NCBI RefSeq assembly: GCF_021284745.1
Contig: NZ_CP089925.1
Span: 124,001-188,000, forward strand
DNA from: Lysobacter sp. KIS68-7
GTDB lineage: Bacteria; Pseudomonadota; Gammaproteobacteria; Xanthomonadales; Xanthomonadaceae
Length of the DNA: 64,000 nt
Direction of reading: 5' to 3'
Positions 10,935 to 26,589 of this stretch are shown in pieces. How positions within the stretch are numbered: position 1 is the first letter of the stretch; each line of letters begins with the position of its first letter. The translations under genes and the position numbers were made by a program. Below the pieces are notes generated by a model. The model was not told the origin of the DNA and made no database searches. It worked only from the letters and a program-made list of their open reading frames with translations.

Positions 10935-11209
10935 AGACGGGCGTTCCGCCATGAGCCGTCGTGTGCTCCTCGCCGCTCACATACCGCAGCTCCCGTCGAG
11001 GAGCACACGACGTCTCACGTCGGACCGCTTCGCGACTCGATGCCCTCGCGGAGCGTCTGGGGTTGTGGGCGCGTCGCGATCGGATCGCGTGCGCCAACAC
11101 CGTAGCTTCGGATCGTCGGCCCGTCGCCCACCTCGGCGCTGCGCCGTCGCGTGCGTCACCTTCGGCAGGCAACGTGCCTAGCGAGATTTGTGGGCACGCG
11201 CCCCTTCGG
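10935..11209 (-). repeat. Structured repeat element, copy A
   Basis: A ~275-bp non-coding element read on the minus strand. It begins CCGAAGGGGCG and ends GGCGGAACGCCCGTCT. Landmarks shared with the other two copies are GAAGGTGACGCACGCG, CCCAGACGCTCCGCG, a GCGAAGCGG-type box and a hairpin near the end. The hairpin stem is GTCGTGTGCTCCTCG with CGAGGAGCACACGAC and the loop begins ACGGGAG and ends GAGCGG. No plausible protein is encoded; the short frames inside differ between copies. See copies B (11211-11482) and C (26315-26589). Confidence 0.85.
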
Positions 11210-11210
11210 A

Positions 11211-11482
11211 CCGAAGGGGCGTCCTCTGAATTGATATCTAGGCACCTTGCCTCCGAAGCGGGACGCACATGCCGATGCAGCGAGCGAGGGGGCAAAGTGC
11301 CGACCGTCCGGAGCCGGAAGTTGGCGCACGCGTTCGCATTGCGGCGACACGCAACTCCCAGACGCTCCGCGCAACGATCAAATAGCGAGCGGGCCGACGT
11401 GAGATGCCGTGTGCTCCTCGACGGGAGCTGCGGTATGTGAGCGGCGAGGAGCACACGGCAGCTCGCGGCGGAACGCCCATCT
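11211..11482 (+). repeat. Structured repeat element, copy B (head-to-head with A)
   Basis: Second copy, on the plus strand, joined to copy A through an 11-bp inverted repeat (CGCCCCTTCGG, one base, CCGAAGGGGCG, 11199-11221). It is more diverged than A or C in the middle. It keeps CAGACGCTCCGCG and GCGAGCGGGCCG, and its terminal stem GCCGTGTGCTCCTCG pairs with CGAGGAGCACACGGC. Relative to copy A the stem carries a paired T-to-C and A-to-G change. The loop is identical to copy A. It ends against the stop codon of the M23 peptidase gene. Confidence 0.85.
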
Positions 11483-12569
11483 AGTGTTTGACCAGGTCAC
11501 CGCTGTCCACCGGCCCGGTGTAAGGCGCACTCCAGCCCGCCCCCGTCTGCACCTGCACGTCGTGGAAATACGCAGGCAGGCCTTCTTGGAATCCCGCACC
11601 CGATTGCAGCTGGTAATGCAGGTGCACGAGGAACGCATCGCCGGACATTCCCATCTGGCCGATCACCTCGCCCGCGCGCACCCGCTGCCCGGGCTTCACC
11701 CGCACGCTGCCCTGCTTCATGTGCGCGAACAGACTGTATTCGCCGTTGCCATGATCGATCACCACATGGTTGCCGAGGAACAACCGCAGGTTCTTCATGA
11801 TCTCGTCCTGCGTGAACGGCGGCGGGCCGCCCTTGCGGTTGTCGCGCATGCCGTCGTGCATCTCCATCACGACACCATCGCCCGTCGCATGGATGGGCGT
11901 GCCATAGCCGTACCAGTCTTCCGGCGTCGCGCCATCGGTGCGGAACAGCTTGCCCTGCGCATCGGCGATGGTGAAGTCGTGCGCGTAACGCATGAAGTTG
12001 GAGGTGATGTTGAAGTGCGTCGTCATCCCGCCGGTGATATCCAGGCGGCGATGGTGGGCGAGGAAATCGTGGCCGTCGTGGACGAAGACGTCGCCGTCGA
12101 GCGGGAAACGCAACGCGGTGTGCGGCACGAACGCGCGCGGGGCGACGCGGATCTCCACGCGCTGCTCGTCGGCCTTCTCATCGCCCGCGGGGCGGAACGT
12201 TGCGACGTAGCGCAGGTCGCCGAGCCACGTTGCCTTCTCGAACTCCGGGAAGGGATTGAAGACCACCAGCCGCCCCTTCGCGGGCAACGTGCGGTTGGGC
12301 AGCGTGGCCAGGCTCATCGTGGTGCTGTCGCCGTTCTGGTCCAGGCGACGCTGCGAGAAGAAGCGGCCTTCGCGATCGAACAGCGTGGCTTCGATGCCGG
12401 TGAGTTCCAGCGCGCGGTCGCTGTCGTTGGAAAAGACGAGGTCGAAGTTCAGGTGCTGGCCATCGCGGCCGGTTTCGATCAGGGGCTCTACTGGGAGCGT
12501 GGCGACCGTGGGGACGGCGGCATGCAGGGCCGGGGCGATGCACAGCAGGCAGGCGAGGAGCAGGCGCAT
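11481..12569 (-). CDS. Secreted M23-family peptidase
   Basis: A 362-residue exported protein with a cleavable-type signal peptide (MRLLLACLLCIAPALHA). The N-terminal half resembles a beta-sandwich. The C-terminal half is a LytM/M23 zinc peptidase domain with MRYAHDF (His and Asp ligands), a Gly-Asp-Gly-Val strand, VVIDHGNGEYSLFAHM and the second metal motif VHLHYQL. M23 enzymes cut peptidoglycan peptides or act as amidase activators. Here the metal ligands look intact, so activity is plausible. The start ATG 12569 is chosen for the signal peptide. It ends within the last bases of repeat copy B. Confidence 0.85.
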   Translation of the reverse strand: MRLLLACLLCIAPALHAAVPTVATLPVEPLIETGRDGQHLNFDLVFSNDSDRALELTGIEATLFDREGRFFSQRRLDQNGDSTTMSLATLPNRTLPAKGRLVVFNPFPEFEKATWLGDLRYVATFRPAGDEKADEQRVEIRVAPRAFVPHTALRFPLDGDVFVHDGHDFLAHHRRLDITGGMTTHFNITSNFMRYAHDFTIADAQGKLFRTDGATPEDWYGYGTPIHATGDGVVMEMHDGMRDNRKGGPPPFTQDEIMKNLRLFLGNHVVIDHGNGEYSLFAHMKQGSVRVKPGQRVRAGEVIGQMGMSGDAFLVHLHYQLQSGAGFQEGLPAYFHDVQVQTGAGWSAPYTGPVDSGDLVKH

Positions 12570-12740
12570 GGGGTCGGGTCCGCGGGTCGGTTCCGGCAAG
12601 GGATACGCCTTGTGACCCGGCGGTTGCGCGCAACACAGCGTCCGAAGGCAGCGTTCACACAACCGGCCTAAGATGGCGCCTTCGAACCTTTGGCCCGGCG
12701 CCGGACATTCAACTCCATGGCCACCTGGTACTCGAAACCC

Positions 12741-13484
12741 ATGAACCTGAAAGCCGTGCCCCTCCTGTTCGCGTTGCTGCTTGCGACCAGCGCGCATGCC
12801 GAACAAGCCACGTATGCGCTCGATCCCGTGCACACGCGCGTGATGTTTTCGGTGAGCCACGCAGGCTTCTCCAATCCGATGGCCACCATCTCCGGCACGA
12901 CCGGCACGCTGGTGTTCGACCCCGACGATTGGTCGAAGGCGCACGTGGAAGCGCACATTCCGCTGAAGCGCCTCGAACTCGGCGATCCGAAATGGAACGC
13001 GGCGGTGCTCGCGCCCAAGTTCCTCGATGCGGACAAACATCCCGAAGCGGTCTTCGTCTCGACGCGCGTCGAGCCGATCGATGCGATGCATGCCACGGTG
13101 ATCGGCAACCTGACGATCCGCGGCGTCACGCGCGAAGTGAAGTTGAATGTCACGCTGAACCAGGTCAAGCGCCACCCGCTGCCGCCGTTCCACCGCACCG
13201 CGGGCTTCTCCGCGACGACGCACGTGAGCCGCAAGGATTTCGCGATGACGGCGTGGCAGAGCGTCGTCGGCGATGCGGTCGAGATCCGACTGGAAGTGGA
13301 AGGCGCGCGCACGCGCGGCGGCAAGATCGAAGAGGAAGGGCCTGCCGGCGCGAGCTCGGTTGCGGCGCCCGGCTCGGTCGAACCCGCGCCCGCGACGACC
13401 GTCCCCTCGCCCGCCGATGCGGAACCCGCGCCGGCTTCGACGGTCGCACCACCGCCCGCATCCGCACCGACCAACCCGCCATAA
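12741..13484 (+). CDS. YceI-family periplasmic protein (long form)
   Basis: YceI-like lipocalin-fold protein; family members bind polyisoprenoid lipids in the periplasm. Signal peptide MNLKAVPLLFALLLATSAHA is followed by YALDPVHTRVMFSVSHAGFS, the YceI start, and LTIRGVTREVKLNVTL. The domain ends near residue 200. Beyond it is a Pro/Ala/Ser-rich tail of about 45 residues with repeated EPAPA units, unusual for the family. ATG 12717 would add eight residues before the signal. It is first in a three-gene run with cytochrome b561 and a second yceI. Confidence 0.88.
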   Translation: MNLKAVPLLFALLLATSAHAEQATYALDPVHTRVMFSVSHAGFSNPMATISGTTGTLVFDPDDWSKAHVEAHIPLKRLELGDPKWNAAVLAPKFLDADKHPEAVFVSTRVEPIDAMHATVIGNLTIRGVTREVKLNVTLNQVKRHPLPPFHRTAGFSATTHVSRKDFAMTAWQSVVGDAVEIRLEVEGARTRGGKIEEEGPAGASSVAAPGSVEPAPATTVPSPADAEPAPASTVAPPPASAPTNPP

Positions 13485-13508
13485 CTCTCCGACTTCCACC
13501 CACCTTCC

Positions 13509-14123
13509 ATGATCGAACCGATGCCCGCCGCGATTTCCCGCCCGTTCCGCAACATCGACCGCTGGGGTGCCGTCAGCCAACTGCTGCACTGGACCGTCGT
13601 CATCCTCATCGTCGTGATGGCCTACGTGGGCCTGACGATGGTGGACCTGCCGAACGGGCCGCCGAAGATCCGCATGTACAACCTGCACAAGTCGATCGGC
13701 CTGACGATCCTGGCGATCGTGGTGCTGCGCGTGCTGTGGCGCGCGTGGGCCGGCGCCCCGAAGCCCATCCCGACGATCCCGCATTGGCAGCGGCGCATCG
13801 CCGACCTCACGCACATCGGCATCTACGTATTGCTGTTCGCGATCCCGATCACCGGTTGGATCATGAATTCCTACGCCGGCTTCCCGCTGCGCTGGTTCGG
13901 GCTGTTCCATGTGCCCGCGCTGACCGCGCGCGACCGCGACATGCACGAGATCTACGAAACCGTGCACGAGGTGTTGTTCTGGTGCCTGGTCGTCGTTGCG
14001 AGCGGGCATGCCTTTGCCGCGATCTACCACCATCTGTTCCAACACGACGCGACGCTCGCGCGCATGCTGCCCAAGGGTTGGCTGCGCGCGCCCACCCCAC
14101 CGCAGGAGTCCCGCAATGTCTGA
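13509..14123 (+). CDS. Cytochrome b561 (CybB-type)
   Basis: A 204-residue integral membrane b-type cytochrome with four predicted helices. Heme-ligand-type histidines are seen in SQLLHWTVVILIVVM, YNLHKSIGLTILA, and two more in DMHEIYETVHEVLFW plus GHAFAAIYHH. Members pass electrons between quinone and periplasmic partners. It lies between two yceI genes and overlaps the second by 8 bases. The yceI-cybB pairing is widespread, which suggests a shared role in quinone or isoprenoid redox handling; that role is an inference. Confidence 0.92.
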   Translation: MIEPMPAAISRPFRNIDRWGAVSQLLHWTVVILIVVMAYVGLTMVDLPNGPPKIRMYNLHKSIGLTILAIVVLRVLWRAWAGAPKPIPTIPHWQRRIADLTHIGIYVLLFAIPITGWIMNSYAGFPLRWFGLFHVPALTARDRDMHEIYETVHEVLFWCLVVVASGHAFAAIYHHLFQHDATLARMLPKGWLRAPTPPQESRNV

Positions 14124-14730
14124 CCTTCCCCGGAGCAATGCGGCGCTGGTCGCCATGGTCGCGGCGATGTTCGCTTCGCCCGCGTTCGCCGCGGACTACG
14201 CGCAGGCGCCGGGTTCGAGCCTGAAATTCTCCGGCAGCTACCAGGAAGAGGCGTTCACGGGTCGGTTCCCGGGCTTCTCCACGTCGCTGCGTTTCGATCC
14301 GGCGCAACTGGCGGGCTCGCGGCTGGACGTCACGATTCCGATCGCGAGCGCGACGACGGACAACCAGGATTACGACGATGAGATGCGCGGCAACGCGTTC
14401 TTCGATTCGAAGAAGTTCCCGCAGGCGCGTTACACGGCGACGACGTTCCGCGCGCTCGGGGGCAATCGCTTTGCGGCGGATGGCACGCTGAGCCTGCACG
14501 GGGTGAGCAAGCCGGTCACGCTCACGTTCACGTGGACGCCGGGGGCGAAGCCGGTGCTCGATGGCAAGGCGACGGTGAAGCGTTTGGACTTCGGGATCGG
14601 CGGCGGCGAGTGGAACGACACGTCGTTGATCGCGAACGATGTGGTGGTGACGACGAAGGTGGTGTTTGCGCCGAAGGTGGCGGCTGCGGCGGCTGCTCCT
14701 GCGGCTAAGCCTGCTGCGAAGGCGAAGTAG
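14116..14730 (+). CDS. YceI-family periplasmic protein
   Basis: A 204-residue YceI protein with a signal peptide ending SPAFAADYAQ. SSLKFSGSYQEEAFTGRF starts the barrel, and FFDSKKFPQARYTATTF plus LSLHGVSKPVTLTFTW are strong family motifs. The start ATG 14116 has CAGGAG upstream and lies inside the end of the cytochrome b561 gene. The C-terminus ends in an Ala/Lys-rich tail. It probably shares transcripts and lipid-binding context with the preceding two genes. Confidence 0.93.
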   Translation: MSDLPRSNAALVAMVAAMFASPAFAADYAQAPGSSLKFSGSYQEEAFTGRFPGFSTSLRFDPAQLAGSRLDVTIPIASATTDNQDYDDEMRGNAFFDSKKFPQARYTATTFRALGGNRFAADGTLSLHGVSKPVTLTFTWTPGAKPVLDGKATVKRLDFGIGGGEWNDTSLIANDVVVTTKVVFAPKVAAAAAAPAAKPAAKAK

Positions 14731-14759
14731 ATCATCGGCTTCGGATGGGCGGCCCGTCC

Positions 14760-14866
14760 TGCGAGGGCTTATGTCCTCGGCCGGTGCGCTGTAGCTGCAT
14801 CCCTGCGGACAGAGCACCGTGCGCAAGGCCATCCATGGCCTTGCTCCGAGGACATAAGCCCTCGCA
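14760..14866. repeat. Long hairpin with perfect 21-bp arms
   Basis: Arms TGCGAGGGCTTATGTCCTCGG (14760-14780, 21 bases) and its exact reverse complement (14846-14866) enclose 65 bases. Inside is a smaller hairpin, GCAAGGCCATCCATGGCCTTGC. The flank GGGCGGCCCGTCCT next to the left arm recalls the edge of the ~275-bp structured repeats, so this may be a diverged relative. No T-run follows on either strand, so a simple terminator is unlikely. It occupies most of the yceI-rluA-type gap. Confidence 0.8.
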
Positions 14867-14927
14867 TGCCGGTCCTCGTCATGAGATTGATTGACACCGC
14901 TTCGGGCGGTCGGTGACACACTGCGGC

Positions 14928-15854
14928 ATGCGCAGGCGCCCTCCCAGCATCGATGGACTCGCTCCGAGCACGCTGCAGTTGCCACCGGGCGCGTGGTCGA
15001 CGGTGCTGGATTGCTTGTGTGAGCGGTTCCCTTCGGTGACGCGCGCGACGTGGTTGGAGCGCATGGCGCGCGGGCGGGTCGTGGATGGCGCCGGGTGTTC
15101 GGTGACGCCGGCAACGCCGTATCGCGTCGGGCTCGAAGTGCATTACTACCGCGAAGTTGTGGACGAGGCGCCGATCCCGTTCGAGGAAGTAGTGCTGCAT
15201 GCCGACGCCGACTTGCTGGTCGCCGACAAGCCGCATTTCCTGCCGGTCACGCCCAGCGGCGGACATGTGCATGAAACCCTGCTGGGGCGTCTGATCCGCC
15301 GAACTGGCAACGCAGCGTTGGCGCCGCTGCACCGAATCGATCGCGAGACCGCAGGCTTGGTGTTGTTCTCGACCAATCCGGAAAGCCGCGCGCGTTACCA
15401 GGCGCTGTTTCGCGAGCGACGGATCGAAAAGCACTACGAAGCGATTGCGCCAGCATTGCCGCGCGTCGAGTTTCCCTGCACTCGCACCAGTCGGATCGTT
15501 TCCGGCGAGCCGTTCTTTCGCATGCAGGAGATCGAAGGGCCGGCGAACAGCGAAACCCGGATCGAGGTGATCGCGCGTGGCGATGCGTTTTGGCGATATG
15601 CGCTGACGCCGGTCACAGGGCGCAAGCACCAGCTGCGTGTGCACATGGCCGCGCTGGGCGCGCCGATTGCCAACGACGGGGTCTATCCGTCGGTGCGCCA
15701 TCGCGAGAAAGGCGATTACTCGGCGCCGCTGCAACTGCTGGCCAAACGGCTTTCGTTCGTCGATCCGCTCAGTGGGGTAGCGCGCAGCTTCTCGAGCCAC
15801 TTCGTACTCCAACCCCATGTCGATTTCGGGCCCCGTCGTTCGTCGTCATGGTGA
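14928..15854 (+). CDS. RluA-family RNA pseudouridine synthase
   Basis: A 308-residue pseudouridine synthase. The catalytic motif is HRIDRETAGLVLF with Asp141. VADKPHFLPVTPSGG and GRKHQLRVHM are the other RluA-family motifs. There is no clear N-terminal S4 domain. The sequence before residue 80 is the divergent, basic type seen in single-domain tRNA/rRNA modifying members. The target uridine cannot be told from sequence alone. The GST gene begins about 37 bases after its stop. Confidence 0.9.
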   Translation: MRRRPPSIDGLAPSTLQLPPGAWSTVLDCLCERFPSVTRATWLERMARGRVVDGAGCSVTPATPYRVGLEVHYYREVVDEAPIPFEEVVLHADADLLVADKPHFLPVTPSGGHVHETLLGRLIRRTGNAALAPLHRIDRETAGLVLFSTNPESRARYQALFRERRIEKHYEAIAPALPRVEFPCTRTSRIVSGEPFFRMQEIEGPANSETRIEVIARGDAFWRYALTPVTGRKHQLRVHMAALGAPIANDGVYPSVRHREKGDYSAPLQLLAKRLSFVDPLSGVARSFSSHFVLQPHVDFGPRRSSSW

Positions 15855-15891
15855 AAAGGGCAACCGCAACATCCATCAGGAGCGCAGCACG

Positions 15892-16530
15892 ATGACCATC
15901 ACCATCACCGCCTTTGAACGTTCCCCCGATGGTGGCAAGGGGCTTGCGCGCGATACGCGCGTTCGCTGGGCGCTGGAGGAAGTCGGGCAACCCTACGAGG
16001 TCCGACTCGTGTCGTTCGCTGCGATGAAGGCACCCGCGCACCTGCGCCTGCATCCTTTCGGCAAGATTCCCACCTACGAGGAAGGCGATCTCGTCCTGTT
16101 CGAATCGGGCGCGATCGTCTTCCACCTCGCCCAACGCCACGCCGGCCTGTTGCCGGACGACGCCAACGCGCGGGCGCGTGCGATCACGTGGATGTTCGCC
16201 GCGCTCAACACCGTGGAGCCGCCGATCCTCGACCTCTCCATCGCGAAGTTCCAGGAAGGCGACAAGCCGTGGGCCAAGGAACGCATGCCCCTGGTGCAAG
16301 AGCGCATTCGCGATCGCATGGTCCCGCTGTCCAACCGCCTGGGCGATGCCGAGTGGCTCGACGGGGCGTTCAGCGCGGGCGACCTGATGATGGTGTCGGT
16401 GCTGCTCAGGCTGCGGCCGTCCGGGATCCTGGACGAGTTTCCAAACCTGGCCGCGTACGTCGCGCGTGGTGAGGCGCGGCCTGCGTACCAGCGTGCGTTC
16501 GCTGCGCAGTTGGCGATCAACGCCCCCTGA
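15892..16530 (+). CDS. Glutathione S-transferase family protein
   Basis: A 212-residue GST. The N-terminal thioredoxin fold includes RVRWALEEVGQPYEV, FGKIPTYEEGDLVLFESGAIVFHLA (cis-Pro and the ESxAI glutathione motif). The helical C-terminal domain includes WLDGAFSAGDLMMVSV, the N-capping box. The start ATG 15892 follows CAGGAG. Substrate unknown; neighbours give no hint. Confidence 0.9.
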   Translation: MTITITAFERSPDGGKGLARDTRVRWALEEVGQPYEVRLVSFAAMKAPAHLRLHPFGKIPTYEEGDLVLFESGAIVFHLAQRHAGLLPDDANARARAITWMFAALNTVEPPILDLSIAKFQEGDKPWAKERMPLVQERIRDRMVPLSNRLGDAEWLDGAFSAGDLMMVSVLLRLRPSGILDEFPNLAAYVARGEARPAYQRAFAAQLAINAP

Positions 16531-16592
16531 TCAAGAGCCGGCAACCGGCTGAGCTTGCATCGCACCGAGAATGGGCCTCAGGGTAGCGCTGC

Positions 16593-18218
16593 ATGTCCAC
16601 GACGATCTCGGTGCTCGGTGGCGTCGGCCTGTTCCTGCTGGGCATGAGCGTCATGACCGGCGGGCTCAAGTCCCTGGCCGGGTCGAAGCTGCGCGAAACA
16701 TTGCAGAAGATGGCGGCGACGCCGTTGTCGGGCGCCTTCTGGGGCGCATTCGTCACGCTGATCGTGCAGTCGTCGAGTGCCACGACGATGACGACCATCG
16801 GACTGGTGAGCGCGGGGTTGCTCACCTTCGCCCAGGGTCTCGGACTGGTGTTCGGTGCGAACGTCGGCACGACCGGGACAGGTTGGCTCATCGCACTCAT
16901 CGGTGTGCGCGTTTCGCTCACGAGTGCCGCGCTGCCCCTGATCTTCGTCGGCGCATTGCTCAAGTTGTTGGGCCGAGGTCGACTGTCCGCCGCGGGCGCG
17001 GCGCTAGCCGGGTTTGCGCTCGTGCTGTTCGGGCTGACGACGCTGCAGCAGGGCATGGGCGGACTCGCCGAGCAACTGCATCCGGCCGACCTCCCCGCGG
17101 TGTCCGGCGTCGGCGCGTGGTCGGGCTTGTGGGGCGTGCTCGCCCTGGTCGGGCTCGGCTTGGCGATGACGGCGGTGATGCAATCGTCCACCGCCGCCAT
17201 TGCCGTCACCTTGTCTGCGCACTTCGCGGGCGCCGTCGGATTGGACCAGGCGTGCGCGCTCATCATCGGGCAGAACATCGGCACCGCGACGAGTTCCGCG
17301 TTGGCGGCGATCGGCGCCAGCGCCACGGCGAAGCGATTGGCCTTGGCCTACGTGCTGTTCAAGCTTGTGGCCGCCGCAATCGCGCTGGCGCTCTTTCCCG
17401 TGACCACGCCCCTGCTCGTCCGCGCCTCCGGATCAATCGACGGCGTCACCCTGCTCGCGGCGTATCACACCGCTTACAACGTCGTCGGCGTTGCGGTCCT
17501 GCTGCCGCTGATCGACAGGTTCACGCGATTCGTCGAACGCCTCCTGCCGGAACGTCGGTCGCCGCTGACGCGCTGCCTCGACCCCGCCGCGCTGACGACC
17601 TCGTTCGCGGCCGAAGAAGCGGTTCGGCGCACGGTGGCACGCGCGCTCGCAGCCATCTGCGGATCGCTCGGCAAGGATGCTGTGCTGGCGGCGCAGGCGG
17701 GCGACGCGTTGCGCCAGGCGTGGCGGTTCATGTCGGAAGCCAGCGGCCCGCCGGAGTCCGAAGCGGAGCAGGCGCAACTCACGCGTACGCTGCATGCGTT
17801 GGATGAGGCGACGCGTCTGGTCGAGGTCGCGGGCGAGCAAGGCGAATTCCGGGCGGCGTCCAGTGAACCCGACGACGTGCGCGCGGCGGAGTTGTGCGCG
17901 GAGGCGATGCGAAACGCGGTCCTGATTGCCGATGACGTGGTCGCGCTTCCAGGTGCGGGCCATCGCGGCGCGACGGAGTCCGCGCTCGCCGATCTCGAGC
18001 GTTGCGCCACGTTGCTACGCGACCATCAGCAGGCCCACCGCGGGGCCATCCTCGCTTCGGTCGCGCGTGGCGCGGTGGGTGCAGACGAGGCGGCGGCGCG
18101 GGTCGAAACCGCACGACGCCTTTCGGACATCACGCGACACGCGTGGCTTTGTGCGGCCAATCTCGTCGAGATCAGGACTTCTCGGTCAGACCCCGAAAGC
18201 CGTAGCCGACGCTCATAA
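16593..18218 (+). CDS. Na+/phosphate cotransporter family protein (NptA/YjbB type)
   Basis: A 541-residue membrane protein with two inverted Na/Pi repeats. Their signatures are LIVQSSSATTMTTIGLV and AVMQSSTAAIAVTL, each within helical hairpins that form the substrate site. About eight helices end near residue 310. The C-terminal 230 residues are soluble and helical, resembling a PhoU-like domain (coiled Ala/Glu/Arg-rich helices). Such proteins export or import phosphate with sodium. The stop lies 9 bases from the convergent first gene of the accessory island, marking the island's left edge. Confidence 0.9.
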   Translation: MSTTISVLGGVGLFLLGMSVMTGGLKSLAGSKLRETLQKMAATPLSGAFWGAFVTLIVQSSSATTMTTIGLVSAGLLTFAQGLGLVFGANVGTTGTGWLIALIGVRVSLTSAALPLIFVGALLKLLGRGRLSAAGAALAGFALVLFGLTTLQQGMGGLAEQLHPADLPAVSGVGAWSGLWGVLALVGLGLAMTAVMQSSTAAIAVTLSAHFAGAVGLDQACALIIGQNIGTATSSALAAIGASATAKRLALAYVLFKLVAAAIALALFPVTTPLLVRASGSIDGVTLLAAYHTAYNVVGVAVLLPLIDRFTRFVERLLPERRSPLTRCLDPAALTTSFAAEEAVRRTVARALAAICGSLGKDAVLAAQAGDALRQAWRFMSEASGPPESEAEQAQLTRTLHALDEATRLVEVAGEQGEFRAASSEPDDVRAAELCAEAMRNAVLIADDVVALPGAGHRGATESALADLERCATLLRDHQQAHRGAILASVARGAVGADEAAARVETARRLSDITRHAWLCAANLVEIRTSRSDPESRSRRS

Positions 18219-18227
18219 GACGACCGA

Positions 18228-18952: not shown

Positions 18953-18997
18953 TACGAAGGTGTCCTGTATCTGCCAATGGCCAAGAGCTGACATCGG

Positions 18998-19088: not shown

Positions 19089-19117
19089 GTGGAATCGAAG
19101 AGTAATGGTGTCAAAGG

Positions 19118-19922: not shown

Positions 19923-19960
19923 CGCGGGGTTCCGTTTGATGGCTAGGACCCATTAGACGA

Positions 19961-20048: not shown

Positions 20049-20050
20049 CG

Positions 20051-20320: not shown

Positions 20321-20366
20321 TTCCGTTCTCCATGCGGGCGCGCTCGGCCCGAAGCGACACTCGCCC

Positions 20367-20807
20367 CTACTTTCCGCACCTCGGAAGGGCGCCTCGAGTC
20401 GAAGGCACTTCGTAAACCGTCCACTTGGCACTCAAACGCCGGATCACGTCTTCGGCGAAGGCATGTGCGGCGACGGGGTTCGTTCCTTCGGAGAAGCCGA
20501 CGGTCATGTCGTATGCGGACAGCCTGAGGTTGCCGGCGCCCCAACCTACGCCTGCTTCGTCATGCGCGCTGATGTTGAGCACCGGATAGCCCGGGGCTTG
20601 TTTCAGCGTCACCAGTTGCTTCTGCGAAGTGGTGCTTACGTCGTGGTACTCCATGTGATGGGACTCGGAAACCGATTGCATCACTTCGATGAAGCGCGCC
20701 GTGTCCGCCGCATCCGCGAGGCAGAGTTGCACCTGGCGAAACGGCTTCTGCCCGCCTGCGCAGCCGGTCAGCAATCCAGCGAGCAAAAGCAACGTGAGCG
20801 CCTTCAT
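20367..20807 (-). CDS. Lipoprotein, unknown
   Basis: A 146-residue predicted lipoprotein with signal MKALTLLLLAGLLTGC; the lipobox is LTGC with Cys at residue 16. The mature part is mixed alpha/beta: QVQLCLADAADTARFIEVMQS, then LVTLKQAPGYPVLNISAHDEAGVG. No family is recognised. The start codon overlaps the stop of the upstream DUF6714-like gene (ATGA), so the two are co-translated. Confidence 0.65.
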   Translation of the reverse strand: MKALTLLLLAGLLTGCAGGQKPFRQVQLCLADAADTARFIEVMQSVSESHHMEYHDVSTTSQKQLVTLKQAPGYPVLNISAHDEAGVGWGAGNLRLSAYDMTVGFSEGTNPVAAHAFAEDVIRRLSAKWTVYEVPSTRGALPRCGK

Positions 20808-21322
20808 GTACCGATTCGCGGAAGTGCCCAGAATTCGAGCGCACGCTCCGCATCCCCGCTTGTGAACTCTTCCGCGTGTATGGCCATATACCTGAGAAAT
20901 GCGGCAACTGCCTCGCGTTGGGGCGCATCGAGGAGGCTGTACTGGCTGGCCGAGTACGCCGGGTAATCCCGGCTTGGCCTCAGTGCAAAGACCACGCAAC
21001 CGGGAACCGCCGTTTCCAGGATCGAGGCTTGCGCGTGCTCCAACGCGTAGAGCATGTAGGCCGGGAGGTAGTACCGGTACTCCTCGGCCTGCATGTGCGC
21101 CAGCAGGCACCCGAAGTGCTCGACCTCCAGCCCGGCGAGGTCCTGCCATTTCGCATCCGTCCGGGTGATGCCGGCGATACGCCATTCCTCGTCCGTGATG
21201 GTGCCGGACATTCCCTTTTCATCCGTGAGCAGGAACTGCCGAAGTGACGTGCTCGCCCGGGGCACGCCGTCGAATGCGGACTCGATGATCCTGCGGGTTG
21301 CCCGCTTGGCGGCATCTTCCAT
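20804..21322 (-). CDS. DUF6714-like cytosolic protein
   Basis: A 172-residue soluble protein. W-rich segment TDAKWQDLAGLEVEHFGC, then YRYYLPAYMLYALEHAQ and YSLLDAPQREAVAAFLRYM, a pattern I associate with DUF6714 proteins, whose function is unknown. ATG 21322 is chosen because GGAGGGG lies just upstream; a TTG 15 bases earlier is possible. It is coupled to the downstream lipoprotein gene. Members of this family are often found in accessory regions. Confidence 0.6.
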   Translation of the reverse strand: MEDAAKRATRRIIESAFDGVPRASTSLRQFLLTDEKGMSGTITDEEWRIAGITRTDAKWQDLAGLEVEHFGCLLAHMQAEEYRYYLPAYMLYALEHAQASILETAVPGCVVFALRPSRDYPAYSASQYSLLDAPQREAVAAFLRYMAIHAEEFTSGDAERALEFWALPRIGT

Positions 21323-21369
21323 GACACTCCCCTCCAATCAGATCTCGCGATGCGTGACCTGCGCCCTGA

Positions 21370-21555
21370 TTACTTCGAACGTGCCCAAACGAATGCCACG
21401 ATGGCGGCGCCAAGACACACGCCCGTGCCGATGAGATGCACGAAATCCACCGCTCGAATGTTGGCAAGGCTCGGGCGGCCGAGCATGCTGCAAAGGCTCA
21501 GGAGACCAAAGGTGGCGAGAACGAAGGCGACTCGGAGATCGCGACGTGAGCTCAT
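21370..21555 (-). CDS. Small two-helix membrane protein, unknown
   Basis: A 61-residue protein: a basic N-terminus MSSRRDLR, helix VAFVLATFGLLSLCSMLG, a short loop and helix FVHLIGTGVCLGAAIVAFVWA. GAGAGGTG lies about 9 bases ahead of the ATG and supports translation. No family recognised. Confidence 0.5.
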   Translation of the reverse strand: MSSRRDLRVAFVLATFGLLSLCSMLGRPSLANIRAVDFVHLIGTGVCLGAAIVAFVWARSK

Positions 21556-21872
21556 CGATTTTCACCTCTCAAGCGTTGTGGACGAGGAGTCGGAACACGG
21601 ACCCACGGGTCTGGTGATACGCCCCGAATGGGATGCAACCCGCTGACTCGCCATGAGCTTATGGAAGCCGGGTCCGGCTAACAAGCAGACACGGACTCAC
21701 CCTGCGGCGCGCACAAGGCGAGCACGCTAGGGCGAATGACTGCTTTGAGTAGAAAGCGGTCACTCAGGGTCGCGGAGGCCACCGATGGATCGAGTGTCCG
21801 CTTTCGGCCAGAAGCGGACACTCGCGAGCACCAGCAGCCGACGCGCGAAACGGGGTCGGCTGGAATGCGTTG
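21556..21872. other. Gene-free stretch with hairpin repeat
   Basis: 317 bases without a supportable gene. It contains the bipartite hairpin repeat copy 3 (21737-21823) and, at 21650-21690, CCGGCTAACAAGC, which loosely recalls the left end of an integron attC site but has no clear partner. The downstream bases 21845-21872 can pair (CAGCCGAC with GTCGGCTG). Confidence 0.5.
21737..21823. repeat. Bipartite hairpin repeat (copy 3)
   Basis: First hairpin 21737-21763 (TGACTGCTTT with AAAGCGGTCA), second hairpin 21792-21823 (GAGTGTCCGCTTT with GAAGCGGACACTC). The 28-base spacer contains GGAGGCCACCGATGGATC. Same two-hairpin layout as copies 2, 7 and 9. Confidence 0.9.
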
Positions 21873-22202
21873 TCAGGCGCCAACTGGAGACGCGTTATCC
21901 CAAGGACTCCACGTATTGGAAAGCAAGTAGATGCCGATCAGGGTTCCAACCGGGAAGCCGAACAGCAAGAGCACGGAAATGACGATGGAGCTGGTGCGGG
22001 CCCAGGGCTTGGATTGCTTAGCGCCCTTGGCGGTGAGGTGGTGCGCCAAGAACACAACCGAGAACAGAATCAATGGGAACGCAAGAGAGACAAGAGAGAC
22101 CTTTGGACTCATTGCTGCCATAAGTGCGAAGAGCGAAAGGCACAGCAGATACAGCCACGAAAGTGCTCGATGAGCCCGATAAACCTTGATGTTTCTTTCC
22201 AC
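21873..22202 (-). CDS. Small membrane protein, unknown
   Basis: A 109-residue protein with about three helices: LSWLYLLCLSLFALMAAM, VSLAFPLILFSVVFLAHHL and SIVISVLLLFGFPVGTLIGIY. A GTG start at 22202 is chosen because AGGGGA lies 6 bases ahead; a GTG at 22235 is also open. The 3' end, TGACAACGCATTCCAGCCGAC, can pair with GTCGGCTG beyond the stop. No family recognised. Confidence 0.5.
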   Translation of the reverse strand: MERNIKVYRAHRALSWLYLLCLSLFALMAAMSPKVSLVSLAFPLILFSVVFLAHHLTAKGAKQSKPWARTSSIVISVLLLFGFPVGTLIGIYLLSNTWSPWDNASPVGA

Positions 22203-22254
22203 AAAATTCCCCTGATAACCAGTTTGGATAATCACAGCAGTTGCGCCCTGACCG

Positions 22255-22270
22255 TTATCCGCTTTCGGCC
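22255..22270. repeat. Half hairpin repeat (copy 4)
   Basis: One arm plus the centre (TATCCGCTTTCGGCC) of the 30-bp repeat; the other arm is missing. It overlaps the last codons of the gene at 22255-22623. Confidence 0.7.
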
Positions 22271-22623
22271 TCTCTCTGCTTTTCCTCGTCCATGACGTAG
22301 TAAGCGAGAAGGACGGAGACAGCGGCTATGAGCAGCGTGAGCAGAAACAAGCCGCTCGTGAGCCCCGCATCCTCATATGAAATCTTCCTCGCCGCAAAGC
22401 CGCATGCGAGCGAGAACATGACGCAAATCGTGAGCGCCTTCCTGCTGGAAGGTCGTTTCAAGACGGCAACAACGATCGCTCCGAAAACAACGGCAGCGAG
22501 GAGAAATTCCCCGAACCCCGGGACCACCGAAAGGCCGAACACAGAGAACACTGCATGCACGCATAGCCAGCCCTTGGCAGATCGAGTGATCACCTCACGC
22601 TGTTTTTCCGTGTTTGTTGCCAT
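22255..22623 (-). CDS. Small membrane protein, C-terminus formed by repeat
   Basis: A 122-residue protein with about four helices (WLCVHAVFSVFGLSVV, FLLAAVVFGAIVVAVL, ALTICVMFSLACGFAA, SGLFLLTLLIAAVSVLLAYY). The last codons (REAESG then TAA) lie in a half copy of the hairpin repeat (GGCCGAAAGCGGATAA on the minus strand), so the repeat supplies the stop codon. ATG 22623 is chosen over an upstream GTG-like start. No family recognised. Confidence 0.55.
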   Translation of the reverse strand: MATNTEKQREVITRSAKGWLCVHAVFSVFGLSVVPGFGEFLLAAVVFGAIVVAVLKRPSSRKALTICVMFSLACGFAARKISYEDAGLTSGLFLLTLLIAAVSVLLAYYVMDEEKQREAESG

Positions 22624-22683
22624 TCCTGGAACGCCCCCTAAGAACGTCACCGCGGCGAGAACTCGCCGCCAAGGCTAAACCAT

Positions 22684-22698
22684 CGAAAGCGGTCACTA
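22684..22698. repeat. Half hairpin repeat (copy 5)
   Basis: CGAAAGCGGTCACTA, the right arm of the first-hairpin type. It overlaps the stop codon of the deaminase gene at 22696. A separate hairpin, CGGCGAGAACTCGCCG, lies about 30 bases to its left. Confidence 0.6.
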
Positions 22699-23178
22699 GG
22701 CGCCTTTACCAATACGTTGCTCCCGCTGCCAGTCAGCATAGAGACCCGGATCGGCCTGGGCTGCGGCGGCGTCATGTCGGATCGTCATCGCCTGCTCGGC
22801 GAACGGCTTCGCAAGATCGGCATAGAGCGCCGCGGTCGACAAACCATAAGGCGCGCCATCTTCGTTGGTGTAGGCGTAGGCGACCTCCGTGATGCCGGCC
22901 AGCCGCATGGCCGCCAGGCACATCGGGCACGGGTGGCCGCTGGCAAAGACGACGCATCCGCGCAGATTCGGTGAACCGAGCGCGCGGGCCGTGGCACGCA
23001 GGGCGTTCAATTCGGCATGCGCGGTCGGGTCGCCAGTTGCCAATATCTCGTTGACGCCGGTCGCGACAATCCTGCCGTCCTTCACCACCACTGCGCCAAA
23101 CGGGCGCCCGCCTTGCATGCTGTTGGCCCGTGCGAGGCGGATCGCTTCGCGCAGGAAGCTTTGGGATGCATCGGTCAT
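22696..23178 (-). CDS. Nucleoside/guanine deaminase-like zinc enzyme
   Basis: A 160-residue cytidine-deaminase-fold protein. Zinc and catalytic motifs are HAELNA and PCPMC; RPFGAVVVKDGRIVATG is the typical first strand-loop. The arrangement matches the guanine deaminase GuaD/TadA-like group, and the Tyr-Ala-Tyr-Thr-Asn segment after PCPMC favours a free-base or nucleoside substrate over tRNA. ATG 23178 is preferred for GAAGAG upstream. It is the only clear enzyme in the island and has higher GC than its neighbours. Confidence 0.85.
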   Translation of the reverse strand: MTDASQSFLREAIRLARANSMQGGRPFGAVVVKDGRIVATGVNEILATGDPTAHAELNALRATARALGSPNLRGCVVFASGHPCPMCLAAMRLAGITEVAYAYTNEDGAPYGLSTAALYADLAKPFAEQAMTIRHDAAAAQADPGLYADWQREQRIGKGA

Positions 23179-23320
23179 GGCGGTCTCTTCCATCGTGTCG
23201 GGGTACGCGCACCATCCGCCGCCGTTGGCACCAACTCGTAGCCGTCCCCCCTTCCACTCAACCAACGCAGACGTACTTTGCCAATCGCCTGAGGGAAGCC
23301 GAACTGACAGCTCGCGCCAA

Positions 23321-23348
23321 GTGTCCGCTATCGGCCAGAAGCGGACAC
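23321..23348. repeat. 30-bp hairpin repeat (copy 6)
   Basis: GTGTCCGCTA then TCGGCCA then GAAGCGGACAC. Single unit between the deaminase gene and the small gene at 23368-23532. Confidence 0.9.
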
Positions 23349-23367
23349 CCAGCCTATTCGACGCAAG

Positions 23368-23532
23368 TTAGCGTTTGCGGTTCTGCCACCAGATCCCCGG
23401 CTGTGACAACAGCATGATTCCCACGCCGAAAAGAATCCCCTTCACGAAGCCGTAGCCCCACCAGAAGATGAGTGCGGCGGCTACAGCAATGAACGCCGCA
23501 GCGTATTGATCTCGCCAGAACTGCTGACTCAT
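23368..23532 (-). CDS. Very small membrane protein, unknown
   Basis: A 54-residue protein: MSQQFWRDQYAAAF, a helix FIAVAAALIFWWGYGFV and a second hydrophobic stretch ILFGVGIMLLSQPGIWW, ending NRKR. An in-frame upstream start at 23550 is possible. It lies between hairpin copies 6 and 7. No family recognised, and it may not be translated. Confidence 0.4.
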   Translation of the reverse strand: MSQQFWRDQYAAAFIAVAAALIFWWGYGFVKGILFGVGIMLLSQPGIWWQNRKR

Positions 23533-23569
23533 GCCGCCCTCGGTGCGCATCCAAATGCCAGCTTAGATC

Positions 23570-23655
23570 ATGTCCGCTTTGGGTCGGAAGCGGTCACTCA
23601 GGGCATGGACCCCGCGACGGGGTCCAGTGTCCGCTTTCGGCCAGGAGCGGACATT
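23570..23655. repeat. Bipartite hairpin repeat (copy 7)
   Basis: Clearest full unit. Hairpin 23570-23598 (ATGTCCGCTTTGGGTCGGAAGCGGTCACT, read in two arms), inner hairpin GGACCCCGCGACGGGGTCC (23607-23625), hairpin 23626-23655 (AGTGTCCGCTTT with GAGCGGACATT). The three hairpins are contiguous within 86 bases. Confidence 0.9.
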
Positions 23656-23674
23656 CGCGACGCCCGAAATAAGC

Positions 23675-23935
23675 CTAGCGCCAGACCGAGCCATCTACCC
23701 AAACGGCCTGACCCGGATGATGCTGCCGAATTGTGTCGACGGCCTCCGCAAGTGCCACCAAGTCTCCTGGATTAACGGACGTAGTGAAGTTAGTGACCAC
23801 TATTCCACTTGCGCGCAACTCCGCCAGGCTAGATGGCTCTAGCACACCAGGCGCAACCCACAAGGCTGAGGGAGGCCACGCAGATGACCCTGCGAGCTGC
23901 TCGTAGCTTTGCCGTGAGCACACGAAATAGATCAT
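23675..23935 (-). CDS. Small protein of unknown function with integron-like 5' junction
   Basis: An 86-residue soluble protein starting MIYFVCSRQSYEQL and ending WVDGSVWR. No family recognised. Immediately ahead of the start the minus strand reads AACTCAGGCGTTAGGTGCAG then ATG. GTTAGGT fits the GTTRRRY core at which integron cassettes are joined, and AACTCAGGC is common in the adjoining attC arm. The gene may therefore be a former gene cassette. Confidence 0.55.
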   Translation of the reverse strand: MIYFVCSRQSYEQLAGSSAWPPSALWVAPGVLEPSSLAELRASGIVVTNFTTSVNPGDLVALAEAVDTIRQHHPGQAVWVDGSVWR

Positions 23936-23975
23936 CTGCACCTAACGCCTGAGTTATGCGGAGCCGCGAACGAGT
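23936..23975 (-). other. Half attC-like site
   Basis: Minus strand GCGGCTCCGCATAACTCAGG followed by CGTTAGGT. This resembles the right half of an integron attC (an arm ending in a GTTRRRY core). The left half expected further upstream is absent; hairpin copy 8 begins there instead. No integrase gene is present in the window. Confidence 0.45.
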
Positions 23976-23986
23976 GCCGGCGAGTG

Positions 23987-24014
23987 GTGTCCGCTTTCGG
24001 CCAGAAGCGGACAC
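23987..24014. repeat. 30-bp hairpin repeat (copy 8)
   Basis: GTGTCCGCTTTCGGCC then AGAAGCGGACAC. It abuts the half attC-like site and lies 8 bases from the stop of the gene at 24023-24334. Confidence 0.9.
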
Positions 24015-24022
24015 TCACCCGG

Positions 24023-24334
24023 TCAGCTTGAGTGGTTTGTATCGCTATCTCGCGCCATTCGAGCGCGGTTAGACCGCGCGAGGATCAAACCGCCAATGAG
24101 CATGAGTACGCCAGGCGCGATGACGGGTGGATAGATTTCATACGTCGCTCGCACGCCATCAAGGATGTGTTTCTGTACGTCATCTCGGGTGTAGGTTTTT
24201 GCGGGGTCCGGCGAGAGTTTCGCGTACTCCGCGAGCACAACCGGTCGAATCCCCGCCCGCAGGATGCCCTCCAGTTGCTGGAGGGAAATCCAAGCGAATC
24301 CGACGAACAAGAGCGCGTAGCCGAGTTTCCGCAT
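24023..24334 (-). CDS. Small membrane protein, unknown
   Basis: A 103-residue protein. N-terminal helix LGYALLFVGFAWISLQQL, a charged middle part (YAKLSPDPAKTYTRDDVQKH) and a second helix VIAPGVLMLIGGLILA with a basic tail. The middle segment would lie on the outer side if both termini are cytoplasmic. ATG 24334 (MRKLGY) is chosen; the longer frame runs into repeat DNA. No family recognised. Confidence 0.55.
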   Translation of the reverse strand: MRKLGYALLFVGFAWISLQQLEGILRAGIRPVVLAEYAKLSPDPAKTYTRDDVQKHILDGVRATYEIYPPVIAPGVLMLIGGLILARSNRARMARDSDTNHSS

Positions 24335-24410
24335 TGATGTTTCCGATGGCTGGATATCGCGCCCTGAGCTTGAAAGCCGGGTTTCGCAAAGGCAAGTCGG
24401 TTGCGGCTGG

Positions 24411-24498
24411 AATGTCCGCTTTGGGTCGAAAGCGGTCACTCACGGACGTGGACCGGCCGAAGGGAGCGGAGTGTCCGTTTTCGACCAAAAGCGGACAT
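24411..24498. repeat. Bipartite hairpin repeat (copy 9)
   Basis: Hairpin 24411-24440 (ATGTCCGCTTTGGGTCG then AAAGCGGTCACT), spacer with CGGCCGAAGGGAGCGG, hairpin 24470-24498 (AGTGTCCGTTTT with AAAAGCGGACAT). The second stem carries paired changes relative to other copies (GTTTT/AAAAG). Confidence 0.9.
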
Positions 24499-24505
24499 AC
24501 GGGCC

Positions 24506-24790
24506 TCAGTCATCCATAGGGAAGAAGGTAAACCCCTTATTGGGCCTTCGCTCTGCCTCGGCTGACACCTCCTCGATCTTCTCGAAGTACACCTTGGCGT
24601 CGTGAGTGCGGTGCTCGAGCGGAACCTCAAGACCCTCGTCATTTCGCAGAAGGTCAACTGCAAGCATCCCTGCCTGCTCGGGGGTTGGAGCATCAACGAA
24701 ACGGGTGGTGTAGAAGCCGATCGGCTTTCGCTCACCAACAAGCTCGCCAGGGAAGTTCTCCCCGCGGATGAAGCATCGAAAGAGTGGCAT
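24506..24790 (-). CDS. Small soluble protein, unknown
   Basis: A 94-residue protein: MPLFRCFIRGENFPGELVGE, GFYTTRFVDAPTPEQA and an acidic end finishing GFTFFPMDD. The pattern looks like a compact alpha/beta domain. I do not recognise a named family, though the composition is that of a genuine protein. It is flanked on both sides by hairpin repeats (copies 9 and 10). Confidence 0.6.
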   Translation of the reverse strand: MPLFRCFIRGENFPGELVGERKPIGFYTTRFVDAPTPEQAGMLAVDLLRNDEGLEVPLEHRTHDAKVYFEKIEEVSAEAERRPNKGFTFFPMDD

Positions 24791-24824
24791 GGTGAATTGC
24801 GTCCAAAGAGATCAAAGAAACAGC

Positions 24825-24848
24825 GTCTGCTTTCGGCCAGGAGCGGAC
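24825..24848. repeat. Hairpin repeat, shortened (copy 10)
   Basis: GTCTGCTTTCGGCC then AGGAGCGGAC. Shorter arms than the other copies. It lies between the genes at 24506-24790 and 24869-25237. Confidence 0.75.
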
Positions 24849-24868
24849 AACTCGCGACATGAGTGCAC

Positions 24869-25237
24869 TCATGCCCCTAAGACCATTGCGGCTGAGAATG
24901 CGGCAAGTGCAAGGAAGCTCAATAGAGACACGGAGCGCAGACCGTTCACGAACTGCGGCTGCGCACCATTCGCGCGTAGCCAGCGATGTTGCACGAAGCC
25001 CAGCACGAGACCAGACGCCAAGAACGCCACTGCTGCAAAGATTCTGTATTGAGGCGGGCCAAACACAAGCGCAATCGCGGGCAATGCAGTCAGCAAGTTA
25101 ACTACCTTGCCGGGCTTGGATTTCTTCAGCAGCAGTCGCTGATCAGCGTGACTCCTGGTGATGAACCTAAAAAAGCAGAAGAAGAACGTGACCCCAAGGA
25201 CTCCGGCGGCGGTGAGCAGCGCGTTTGCAAAGGACAT
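24869..25237 (-). CDS. Small membrane protein, unknown
   Basis: A 122-residue protein with about four helices (ALLTAAGVLGVTFFFCFF, VVNLLTALPAIALVFG, IFAAVAFLASGLVLGFV, VSLLSFLALAAFSAAMVLGA). A basic loop (RSHADQRLLLKKSKPGK) follows helix one. ATG 25237 (MSFANALL) is chosen; the upstream frame is repeat-derived. It is the rightmost gene of the minus-strand island. No family recognised. Confidence 0.55.
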   Translation of the reverse strand: MSFANALLTAAGVLGVTFFFCFFRFITRSHADQRLLLKKSKPGKVVNLLTALPAIALVFGPPQYRIFAAVAFLASGLVLGFVQHRWLRANGAQPQFVNGLRSVSLLSFLALAAFSAAMVLGA

Positions 25238-25313
25238 GCTGAATCGTTGAAAAAAAGGATGGACCTGCGCAAGGTACCAAGTCCAAGTGCTTCGGCGCGA
25301 GCAGGCGGACCGG

Positions 25314-25343
25314 ATGTCGGCTTCGGGTCGAAAGCGGCCACCC
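25314..25343. repeat. Hairpin repeat, single unit (copy 11)
   Basis: ATGTCGGCTTCGGGTCG then AAAGCGGCCAC. Most diverged full-length copy and the right-hand limit of the hairpin family, 25 bases before the 42-bp array. Confidence 0.75.
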
Positions 25344-25368
25344 ACATCTGGTCCTCACTCCAGCGCCC

Positions 25369-25704
25369 GAGTGCCTCCGGCATTCAACCGAACGCTTCTC
25401 CAACGCGCTCGAGTGCTTCCGGAACCCAATCGAACGCGTCGCCAACGCACTCGAGTGCTTCCGGAACCCAATCGAACGCGTCGCCAACCCACTCGAGTGC
25501 TTCCGGAACCCAATCGAACGCGTCGCCAACCCACTCGAGTGCTTCCGGAACCCAATCGAACGCTTCGCCAACCCACTCGAGTGCTTCCGGAACCCAATCG
25601 AACGCTTTGCCGACGCACTCGAGTGCTTCCGGAACCCAATTGAACGCGTTGGCGACGTCTCCGAGTGCGTCCGGAACGCACTCGAACGCACTCGCGACCC
25701 GTTT
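25369..25704. repeat. Tandem array, eight units of 42 bp
   Basis: Units begin GAGTGC(T)TCCGGAACCCAAT at 25369, 25411, 25453, 25495, 25537, 25579, 25621 and 25663. The central units differ at only a few positions. The first and last are diverged. There are no spacers, so it is not a CRISPR. Since 42 is divisible by three, all six frames stay open across it. Confidence 0.95.
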
Positions 25705-25731
25705 TGGCGCCCTCGCCCGGGCTGCGGACAT
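25384..25731 (-). CDS. Repeat protein with 14-residue amphipathic units (tentative)
   Basis: Of the six open frames across the 42-bp array, this one alone gives a plausible protein: repeats of AFDWVPEALEWVGD, alternating hydrophobic and acidic residues, 115 residues in all. Unit differences fall on D/E/K and W/C positions. The start ATG 25731 (MSAARARAPK) has no convincing ribosome-binding site, and a longer in-frame start at 25884 exists. No family recognised. The alternative is that the array is not translated. Confidence 0.35.
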   Translation of the reverse strand: MSAARARAPKRVASAFECVPDALGDVANAFNWVPEALECVGKAFDWVPEALEWVGEAFDWVPEALEWVGDAFDWVPEALEWVGDAFDWVPEALECVGDAFDWVPEALERVGEAFG

Positions 25732-25993
25732 TGCCAGTTCGCTTAGGGACGCATCCGGCTGACGTTGCGCTTCCGTCCAATAGGCGTGCACGCAAGTGCA
25801 ATTCACGATGGGCCACGGAGCCTGAAAACTCCATGCGACGAAAGCCCGACAGATCCCATGTCGGGAGGGCGACGAATACAACACCTCTCCGAGGGAATAG
25901 GTCGCGCCGTGTTCGCATGACGGTTTTCAGCCTCCCGACACCTTGCGCTGCCCTGCACCGCAAGCCCCAGCCCAGGATCAACCGGAGGTTCAC

Positions 25994-26296
25994 ATGCAAC
26001 GCGCCCCCACCGTCTTTTGCATCCCCGAAGAAGCCCACATCGAGCTGATCAAACTGCGCGAGTTCCTGCGCGTGATGTCGCGTCTTGTCGAACCCGGCAC
26101 CACCGCCAGCGAGCACGACTTCATCCTCCGCCCGCACGCGCTGTCTTGGCTGATCACCCAACTCTGGACCGAACTCGGCAAGATCGTACAAACCACCTAC
26201 TGGTCCGAAGACCACACCGAAGACCTCGAAGAAGCCCACCGCCGCATCGCCGAAATGCGCGAACGCAACGCCGAACTTCGCGGCCACATCGAGTAG
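25994..26296 (+). CDS. XAC0095-like small protein
   Basis: A 100-residue protein: VFCIPEEAHIELIKLREFLRVMSRLVEPG, then an aromatic helix WLITQLWTELGKIVQTTYW and an acidic coiled end. The opening pattern (IPEEA, a Leu-rich helix, LREFLRVMSRL) is that of XAC0095-family proteins, a group essentially confined to Xanthomonadaceae and of unknown function. GGAGG lies 6 bases before the ATG. It is the first plus-strand gene right of the island; structured repeat copy C begins 19 bases after its stop. Confidence 0.7.
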   Translation: MQRAPTVFCIPEEAHIELIKLREFLRVMSRLVEPGTTASEHDFILRPHALSWLITQLWTELGKIVQTTYWSEDHTEDLEEAHRRIAEMRERNAELRGHIE

Positions 26297-26314
26297 CCCG
26301 CCCTGCCCTTCCCA

Positions 26315-26589
26315 CCGAAGGGGCGTCCCCCAATCCCATGTCTAGGAACGCTGCCTGCCGAAGGTGACGCACGCGACGGCGCAGCGCCGAGGTGGGCAGC
26401 GTTCCGTCCGTCCGGAGCTACGGTGCAGGCGCGCAGCCTCCTGATGGCGACGGCCCGCAGACCCCAGACGCTCCGCGAGGCCATCCAATCGCGAAGCGGG
26501 CCGGCGCGAGACGTCGTGTCCTTCATGGACGGGAGTGCGTCATCGAGCGGCCATGAAGGACACGACGGCTCGTGACGGACCGCCCGTCT
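26315..26589 (+). repeat. Structured repeat element, copy C
   Basis: Third copy of the ~275-bp element. It starts CCGAAGGGGCGTCC and ends GACCGCCCGTCT. The 5' stem AGGAACGCTGCC pairs with GGCAGCGTTCC about 45 bases on. The 3' hairpin has stem GTCGTGTCCTTCATGG with CCATGAAGGACACGAC, different in the upper half from copies A and B yet fully paired. Its loop keeps ACGGGAG, GCG, AT and GAGCGG. CCCAGACGCTCCGCG and TCGCGAAGCGGGCCG are also kept. It lies between two convergent genes, so no gene reads directly out of it. Confidence 0.85.

What the first reader, a model, noticed from the sequence alone, without database searches (positions are those of the whole stretch)
10935..26589. A ~275-bp structured non-coding repeat with compensatory changes in its hairpin stem
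Three copies (10935-11209 minus, 11211-11482 plus, 26315-26589 plus) share start and end sequences, several boxes (CAGACGCTCCGCG, GAAGCGGGCCG) and a long terminal hairpin. The stem is GTCGTGTGCTCCTCG in copy A, GCCGTGTGCTCCTCG in B and GTCGTGTCCTTCATGG in C, each perfectly paired with its partner. The loop keeps ACGGGAG, GCG, AT and GAGCGG. Stem sequence varies while pairing and loop are held, which is the signature of selection on structure. No transposase or protein is encoded. It could be a structured RNA, a non-autonomous mobile element or a protein-binding DNA hairpin.
Basis: partly seen in the sequence, partly recalled or inferred. Interest (0 to 1): 0.85.

Follow-up and report, generated by a model that had tools for sequence, protein, structure and literature searches.

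The report
Foldback repeat between converging genes
The repeats are parts of a large palindromic DNA element that codes for no protein, occurs in many copies in this genome and in two related species, and is often wedged between two genes that point at each other; it resembles known bacterial REP/BIME repeats in behaviour but is bigger and differently built.

Summary
A and B are the two arms of one 556-bp foldback element (10931-11486); C is a single half. I count 14 complete elements, the half C, a 109-bp mini-element and two diverged relatives in this genome, and families with the same layout but other stems in two sister species. Compensated stem changes are strong: 10 of 32 pairs, reached by 0 of 500 shuffles. 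Some come as clusters of neighbouring pairs beside an unchanged loop, a footprint of DNA template switching, so selection on structure is not proven. Wobble outnumbers A-C mispairs on the centre-to-outer strand, 18 to 3 in two species, so that strand probably folds. Elements favour convergent genes (10 of 16, against 6 of 44 pairs in the window). Three sites lack the element in each sister where both flanks aligned. No Rfam family reaches its cut-off; no gene lies inside; the genome has no Y1_Tnp or RVT_1 match. Best reading: a non-autonomous, REP/BIME-like mobile palindrome at gene 3' ends. It fails the REP tag and transposase tests: a new variant of a known kind. Mobiliser and transcription are unknown.

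The parts
10931..11486 (.).
   Evidence: Head-to-head halves with inverted ends CACnAGA / TCTnGTG; folds as one hairpin, z = -27; absent at this site in four sister species
10931..11209 (-). Left half (copy A), beta type
   Evidence: Alignments
11199..11221 (.). Central palindrome CGCCCCTTCGG-A-CCGAAGGGGCG
   Evidence: Sequence
11211..11486 (+). Right half (copy B), alpha type
   Evidence: Alignments
10957..11012 (-). Long terminal hairpin H2 of the left half (arms 10957-10972 and 10997-11012)
11358..11371 (+). Box CCAGACGCTCCGCG, identical in 29 of 29 halves; 5' side of small hairpin H1
11405..11460 (+). Long terminal hairpin H2 of the right half (arms 11405-11420 and 11445-11460)
11467..11477 (+). 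Small hairpin H3, GGCG-nnn-CGCC, followed by tail CATCTAGTG
26315..26593 (+). Single half-element (copy C)
26512..26567 (+). Long terminal hairpin H2 of C (arms 26512-26528 and 26551-26567)
9856..10917 (+). Flanking gene, uroporphyrinogen decarboxylase (hemE); stop 13 bp before the element
   Evidence: PF01208, gene call
11481..12569 (-). Flanking convergent gene, M23 peptidase; its TAG stop lies inside the end of the element
   Evidence: PF01551
26606..26869 (-). Short ORF converging on C; with the plus-strand ORF that ends at 26296 it makes C's site convergent
   Evidence: ORF list; missed by the automatic caller

Best explanation
A non-autonomous, protein-less mobile palindrome of REP/BIME style, but larger. 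Two head-to-head halves of about 275 bp, each with an inner hairpin, small hairpins H1 and H3 and a long terminal hairpin H2, form a foldback of about 560 bp. Shown: many copies, absence at orthologous sites in sisters, species-specific stem families with one layout, placement beside stop codons and often between convergent genes, strand-biased wobble pairs, paired stem changes. Inferred: it was spread by an enzyme acting in trans on its ends; it survives mainly downstream of stop codons; there, read-through RNA from either gene would carry 3' hairpins that protect mRNA ends or limit antisense read-through; template switching between stem arms rewrites and re-perfects the stems.
For: Copies: 14 complete elements plus C and a mini-element. 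Sites without it: 12, 52, 35 and 23 bp between aligned flanks in four sisters at the hemE site; 6 bp in the one testable sister for L026; 16, 50 and 26 bp in three sisters for L021. Context: 10 of 16 convergent against 6 of 44 gene pairs in the window, Fisher p = 0.0004; 13 of 16 start 5-18 bp after a stop codon on the left. Same layout with other stems in G002 and G004. Published REPs show the same placement, under 20 bp from both 3' ends, and lend TAG stops to neighbours (PMC3733652 section 15).
Against: No mobilising gene was identified: no Y1_Tnp match in the own genome, no RVT_1 match, no parent element with these ends seen (capped list). No target-site duplication is visible by eye at the three compared sites. 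No transcription data; a consensus scan found 0 promoter-like and 0 terminator-like sites in 10700-11700. The convergent count rests on a home-made gene caller and a 64-kb background that includes the element's own site.
Confidence: 0.62

Rival explanations
1. A structured RNA whose stems are kept paired by selection; the outward strand of each half is the functional molecule, for example a 3'-end stabiliser, a terminator or a small RNA.
For: 10 of 32 pairs changed on both sides, 0 of 500 shuffles. GU:AC distinct positions 8:2, 10:1 and 14:0 in three species. Sense strand of the terminal region more stable in 27 of 29 and 18 of 18 halves.
Against: Concerted multi-pair changes with an untouched loop fit template switching. 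The inner region has no strand bias (8 of 29). No Rfam family at cut-off, no promoter-like site. Absent at the three compared sites in sisters.
Confidence: 0.2
2. Single-stranded DNA hairpin substrate: the outward strand is recognised and cut by a HUH-type or other nuclease in trans, as REP hairpins are thought to be by RAYTs.
For: Terminal hairpins at inverted ends, strand-biased wobble, no visible target duplication.
Against: No Y1_Tnp match in the own genome; only G001, which gave no R1 match, has one of five. Other HUH families were not searched.
Confidence: 0.1
3. A protein-binding DNA hairpin with a host role (for example a chromosome-organising site).
For: 14-bp box identical in 29 of 29 halves; regular layout.
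Against: Stem sequence changes completely between species; the three compared sites lack the element in sisters.
Confidence: 0.08

Closest known systems
REP sequences and their head-to-head dimers (BIMEs), GTAG superfamily (PMC3733652)
   Same: Non-coding palindromes in head-to-head pairs, next to stop codons, often between convergent genes, lending TAG stops to neighbours
   Different: Units of about 275 bp with several hairpins instead of 20-40 bp; no GTAG tag at the ends; no Y1_Tnp match in the own genome
CGTC-tagged REPs (PMC3733652)
   Same: CGTC follows hairpin H3 in 17 of 29 halves (A2); no dedicated transposase is known for that superfamily either
   Different: 4-bp H3 stem with a 3-base loop instead of 8-9 bp stems; far larger unit
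MITEs
   Same: Short, non-coding, inverted termini, many copies, site absent in relatives
   Different: No visible target duplication, no parent transposon found, nested hairpins, half-elements stand alone (C)
Template-switch-maintained RNA hairpins (PMC8794818)
   Same: Multi-base compensatory stem changes in one step
   Different: That paper concerns RNA genes; here it is a dispersed repeat of unproven transcription

Membership tests
REP/BIME (GTAG) | Unpaired GTAG tag at one end of the palindrome | tested here: not met
   Ends read CACnAGA / TCTnGTG in the 29-half alignment; no conserved GTAG
REP/BIME (GTAG) | 20-40 bp repeat unit | tested here: not met
   Half of about 275 bp, element about 560 bp
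REP/BIME (GTAG) | Associated RAYT (Y1) transposase | tested here: not met
   PF01797: 0 matches in the own genome; 1 of 5 genomes of the genus, G001. [quoted passage not shown]
REP/BIME (GTAG) | Close to 3' ends, often between convergent genes | tested here: met
   10 of 16 convergent, 13 of 16 left stops within 18 bp
CGTC REP | CGTC tag on an 8-9 bp stem with 4-5 base loop | tested here: not met
   CGTC beside H3 in 17 of 29 halves, but H3 is 4 bp with a 3-base loop
MITE | Terminal inverted repeats | tested here: met
   CACnAGAnnGGCG inverted at the ends; left end degenerate in L017
MITE | Target-site duplication | tested here: inconclusive
   None seen by eye at three compared sites; flanks diverged and some bases lost
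MITE | Parent transposon with the same ends | tested here: inconclusive
Known RNA family (Rfam 15) | Score above a family's gathering cut-off | tested here: not met
   None over the elements. Permissive scan: best MIR918, E 7.5e-6 but 41.4 bits against a cut-off of 268, as long hairpins give; seven sister loci likewise below cut-off

The most novel reading that the evidence does not exclude
A fast-diversifying structured element family whose outward strand acts as a folded single strand (RNA), and whose long stem carries a variable, always self-complementary middle block (in G004 GATGAGGG followed by CCAAG, TGATA or CGACA, then GGTCCTTG) rewritten by template switching while loop and frame are kept, so that each copy bears its own sequence label at a gene 3' end; it spreads without any protein of its own.
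Probability: 0.13. Interest if true: 0.78.

Novelty: new variant of a known kind. Interest (0 to 1): 0.5.

Why it matters
Here paired stem changes can be read copy by copy inside one genome. That makes a natural test of whether compensatory changes, the evidence used to call functional RNAs, come from selection or from DNA template switching. It also adds a large, modular kind of REP-like element with no known mobiliser, an open question already raised for CGTC REPs (PMC3733652).

Tried and rejected
Gene inside the element: none called in the window element or in the sister loci; the long frames over A+B are mechanical. The other own-genome elements were not scanned for genes. Rfam. Phage or plasmid origin: no blastn match. 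Same sequence in relatives by blastn: 3 of 60 genomes including the own one; the two others are 30 and 53 bases and look like coding DNA by eye. R1 over 297 family genomes: 4 with a match, namely own, G004, G002 and a weak one in G229 that reads as a different palindrome. R2 over 385: 4 with a match, namely own, G002 and weak ones in G001 and G170; it missed G004 there although it finds G004 elements when given the loci. Only 8-11 candidates per genome were scored under strict filters, so absence outside the genus is a limited negative, and copy numbers may be low (one search scored 150 of about 4,700 candidates per genome). C's left flank did not align in sisters, so its site is untested. In one search identical stems were merged before counting; G002 was 18 chosen halves and G004 10 chosen hairpins, and G004 orientation came from R1, which itself favours wobble. 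Integron attC sites and IS110 bridge RNA were considered from memory only. Six literature searches listed no report of this family, as far as the listings show; from PMC3733652 I read the abstract, passages and sections 15 and 16, from PMC8794818 the abstract and opening text, the rest as listings.

Full report
Observation. The three copies exist as described. A and B are head-to-head: 10931-11486 is one element of 556 bp with ends CACCAGA and TCTAGTG and centre CGCCCCTTCGG-A-CCGAAGGGGCG. Folded whole it gives -441.8 kcal/mol, z = -27 against 100 shuffles. C is one half.

Copies. blastn with B found 40 pieces in the 3.25-Mb own genome. I grouped them by hand into 14 complete head-to-head elements, C, and a 109-bp mini-element (L026), fetched and aligned (29 halves; the mini-element left out). 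By reading that alignment, each of the 14 complete elements has one alpha half and one beta or gamma half. The two long hairpins of one element differ in type in 6 of 14, so left-right identity is not required. The second model found two diverged relatives, at 1701243 and 1981815 (the first also).

Structure. RNAalifold on 29 terminal regions gives three hairpins: H1 with the box CCAGACGCTCCGCG (identical in 29 of 29), long H2 and small H3, then a tail of the form TCTnGTG in most. Of 34 predicted pairs 11 have changes on both sides. On the 32 pairs that I named, 10 do, with 74 cells; 0 of 500 shuffles reach this and slid controls reach at most 4 pairs. One measure, the number of further pair types, is no higher than shuffled (21 against 21.0). 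The rows are related, so cells are not events. In 22 of 29 halves the long stem has at least 16 uninterrupted pairs.

Selection or template switching. The 11 type-2 hairpins share one loop exactly. L022L differs from their consensus by three neighbouring pairs, both arms, and nothing else over 69 columns; L021L shares those three but has three one-sided changes too; L019R differs by one pair (T-A to G-C); L020R, L021R and L023R share another three pairs. One-sided changes also occur: in 4 of 11 type-2 and 14 of 16 type-1 hairpins. In G004 three related stems differ at 2 to 4 positions, each mirrored exactly in the other arm. Multi-base compensatory changes are a reported footprint of template switching (PMC8794818, abstract), so the step from compensation to selection is not secure.

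Strand. Wobble and A-C mispairs were treated alike when stems were extended on the centre-to-outer strand. Distinct positions are GU:AC 8:2 (G000, 21 distinct stems), 10:1 (G002, 14) and 14:0 (G004, 9). For G000 and G002, oriented by box and ends, 18:3 gives p = 0.0015; all 32:3 gives p = 4e-7, with positions taken as independent and G004 oriented by R1, which leans to wobble. The terminal region folds better on that strand in 27 of 29 (G000) and 18 of 18 (G002) halves, the inner region in only 8 of 29. This fits RNA, or single-stranded DNA handled on one strand.

Distribution. R1 at E <= 1 matched 4 of the 5 genomes of the genus: G000, G004 (10 matches), G002 (4, one of them at E 0.6) and G003 (2 weak, E 0.1-0.4); G001 none. 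G002 has a family of its own with other stems and mostly CTGGTGG ends, as full foldbacks and as halves. R2, built from 18 halves of G002 alone, matches at E <= 0.1 in all 17 own-genome sources and all 10 G004 loci given, and in 0 of 2 G003 loci. Outside the genus only single weak matches appeared.

Orthologous sites. Between hemE and the peptidase gene the sisters have 12 (G004), 52 (G002), 35 (G001) and 23 bp (G003) between aligned flanks. For the mini-element the one sister with both flanks (G002) has 6 bp. For L021 three sisters have 16, 50 and 26 bp; in G003 the flanks hit different contigs and were not compared. Insertion in this lineage is the simplest reading.

Context. A codon-usage caller of my own put 10 of 16 elements between convergent genes; 6 of 44 neighbouring pairs in the window are convergent, the element's own site included (Fisher p = 0.0004). 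It missed the minus-strand ORF 26606-26869 right of C, which makes C convergent too. 13 of 16 begin 5-18 bp after a left-hand stop codon; L013 lies between divergent calls. The stop of the peptidase gene lies inside the element. By my reading, 6 of 10 G004 and 7 of 16 G002 loci lie between convergent calls. REPs behave in this way (PMC3733652, section 15).

Verdict. A REP/BIME-like, non-autonomous mobile foldback, confidence 0.62. It works like REP dimers in placement and layout but fails the tag, size and transposase tests, so I do not file it as a REP. How it moved, and whether it is transcribed, are unknown.

Noticed in passing
window 25860-26207: sRNA-Xcc1 (RF02221) match at 25860-25947, just above its cut-off (54.4 against 53 bits); the stretch from 25860 has similar DNA elsewhere in all four sister species.
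   Followed up: partly
window 33774-33891 (-): SAM riboswitch (RF00162), 69.5 bits.
   Followed up: no
window 25368-25689: Tandem array of a 42-bp unit, 7.7 copies, 91% matches.
   Followed up: no
L271 (G000:C1:1981815), L204, and G004 loci L206, L207, L209, L210 and L213: Other hairpins of these elements have CCATGGATGG or CCATCCATGG near the tip with changing, still paired flanks.
   Followed up: no
L012 left of the element; L015 right of the element: A second partial copy of the element end, about 20 bp, sits directly outside one end.
   Followed up: no
L214 (G004) and L215 (G002): The first 970 bases are 80% alike, so both species have an element after what looks like the same gene, with different element sequence.
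   Followed up: partly
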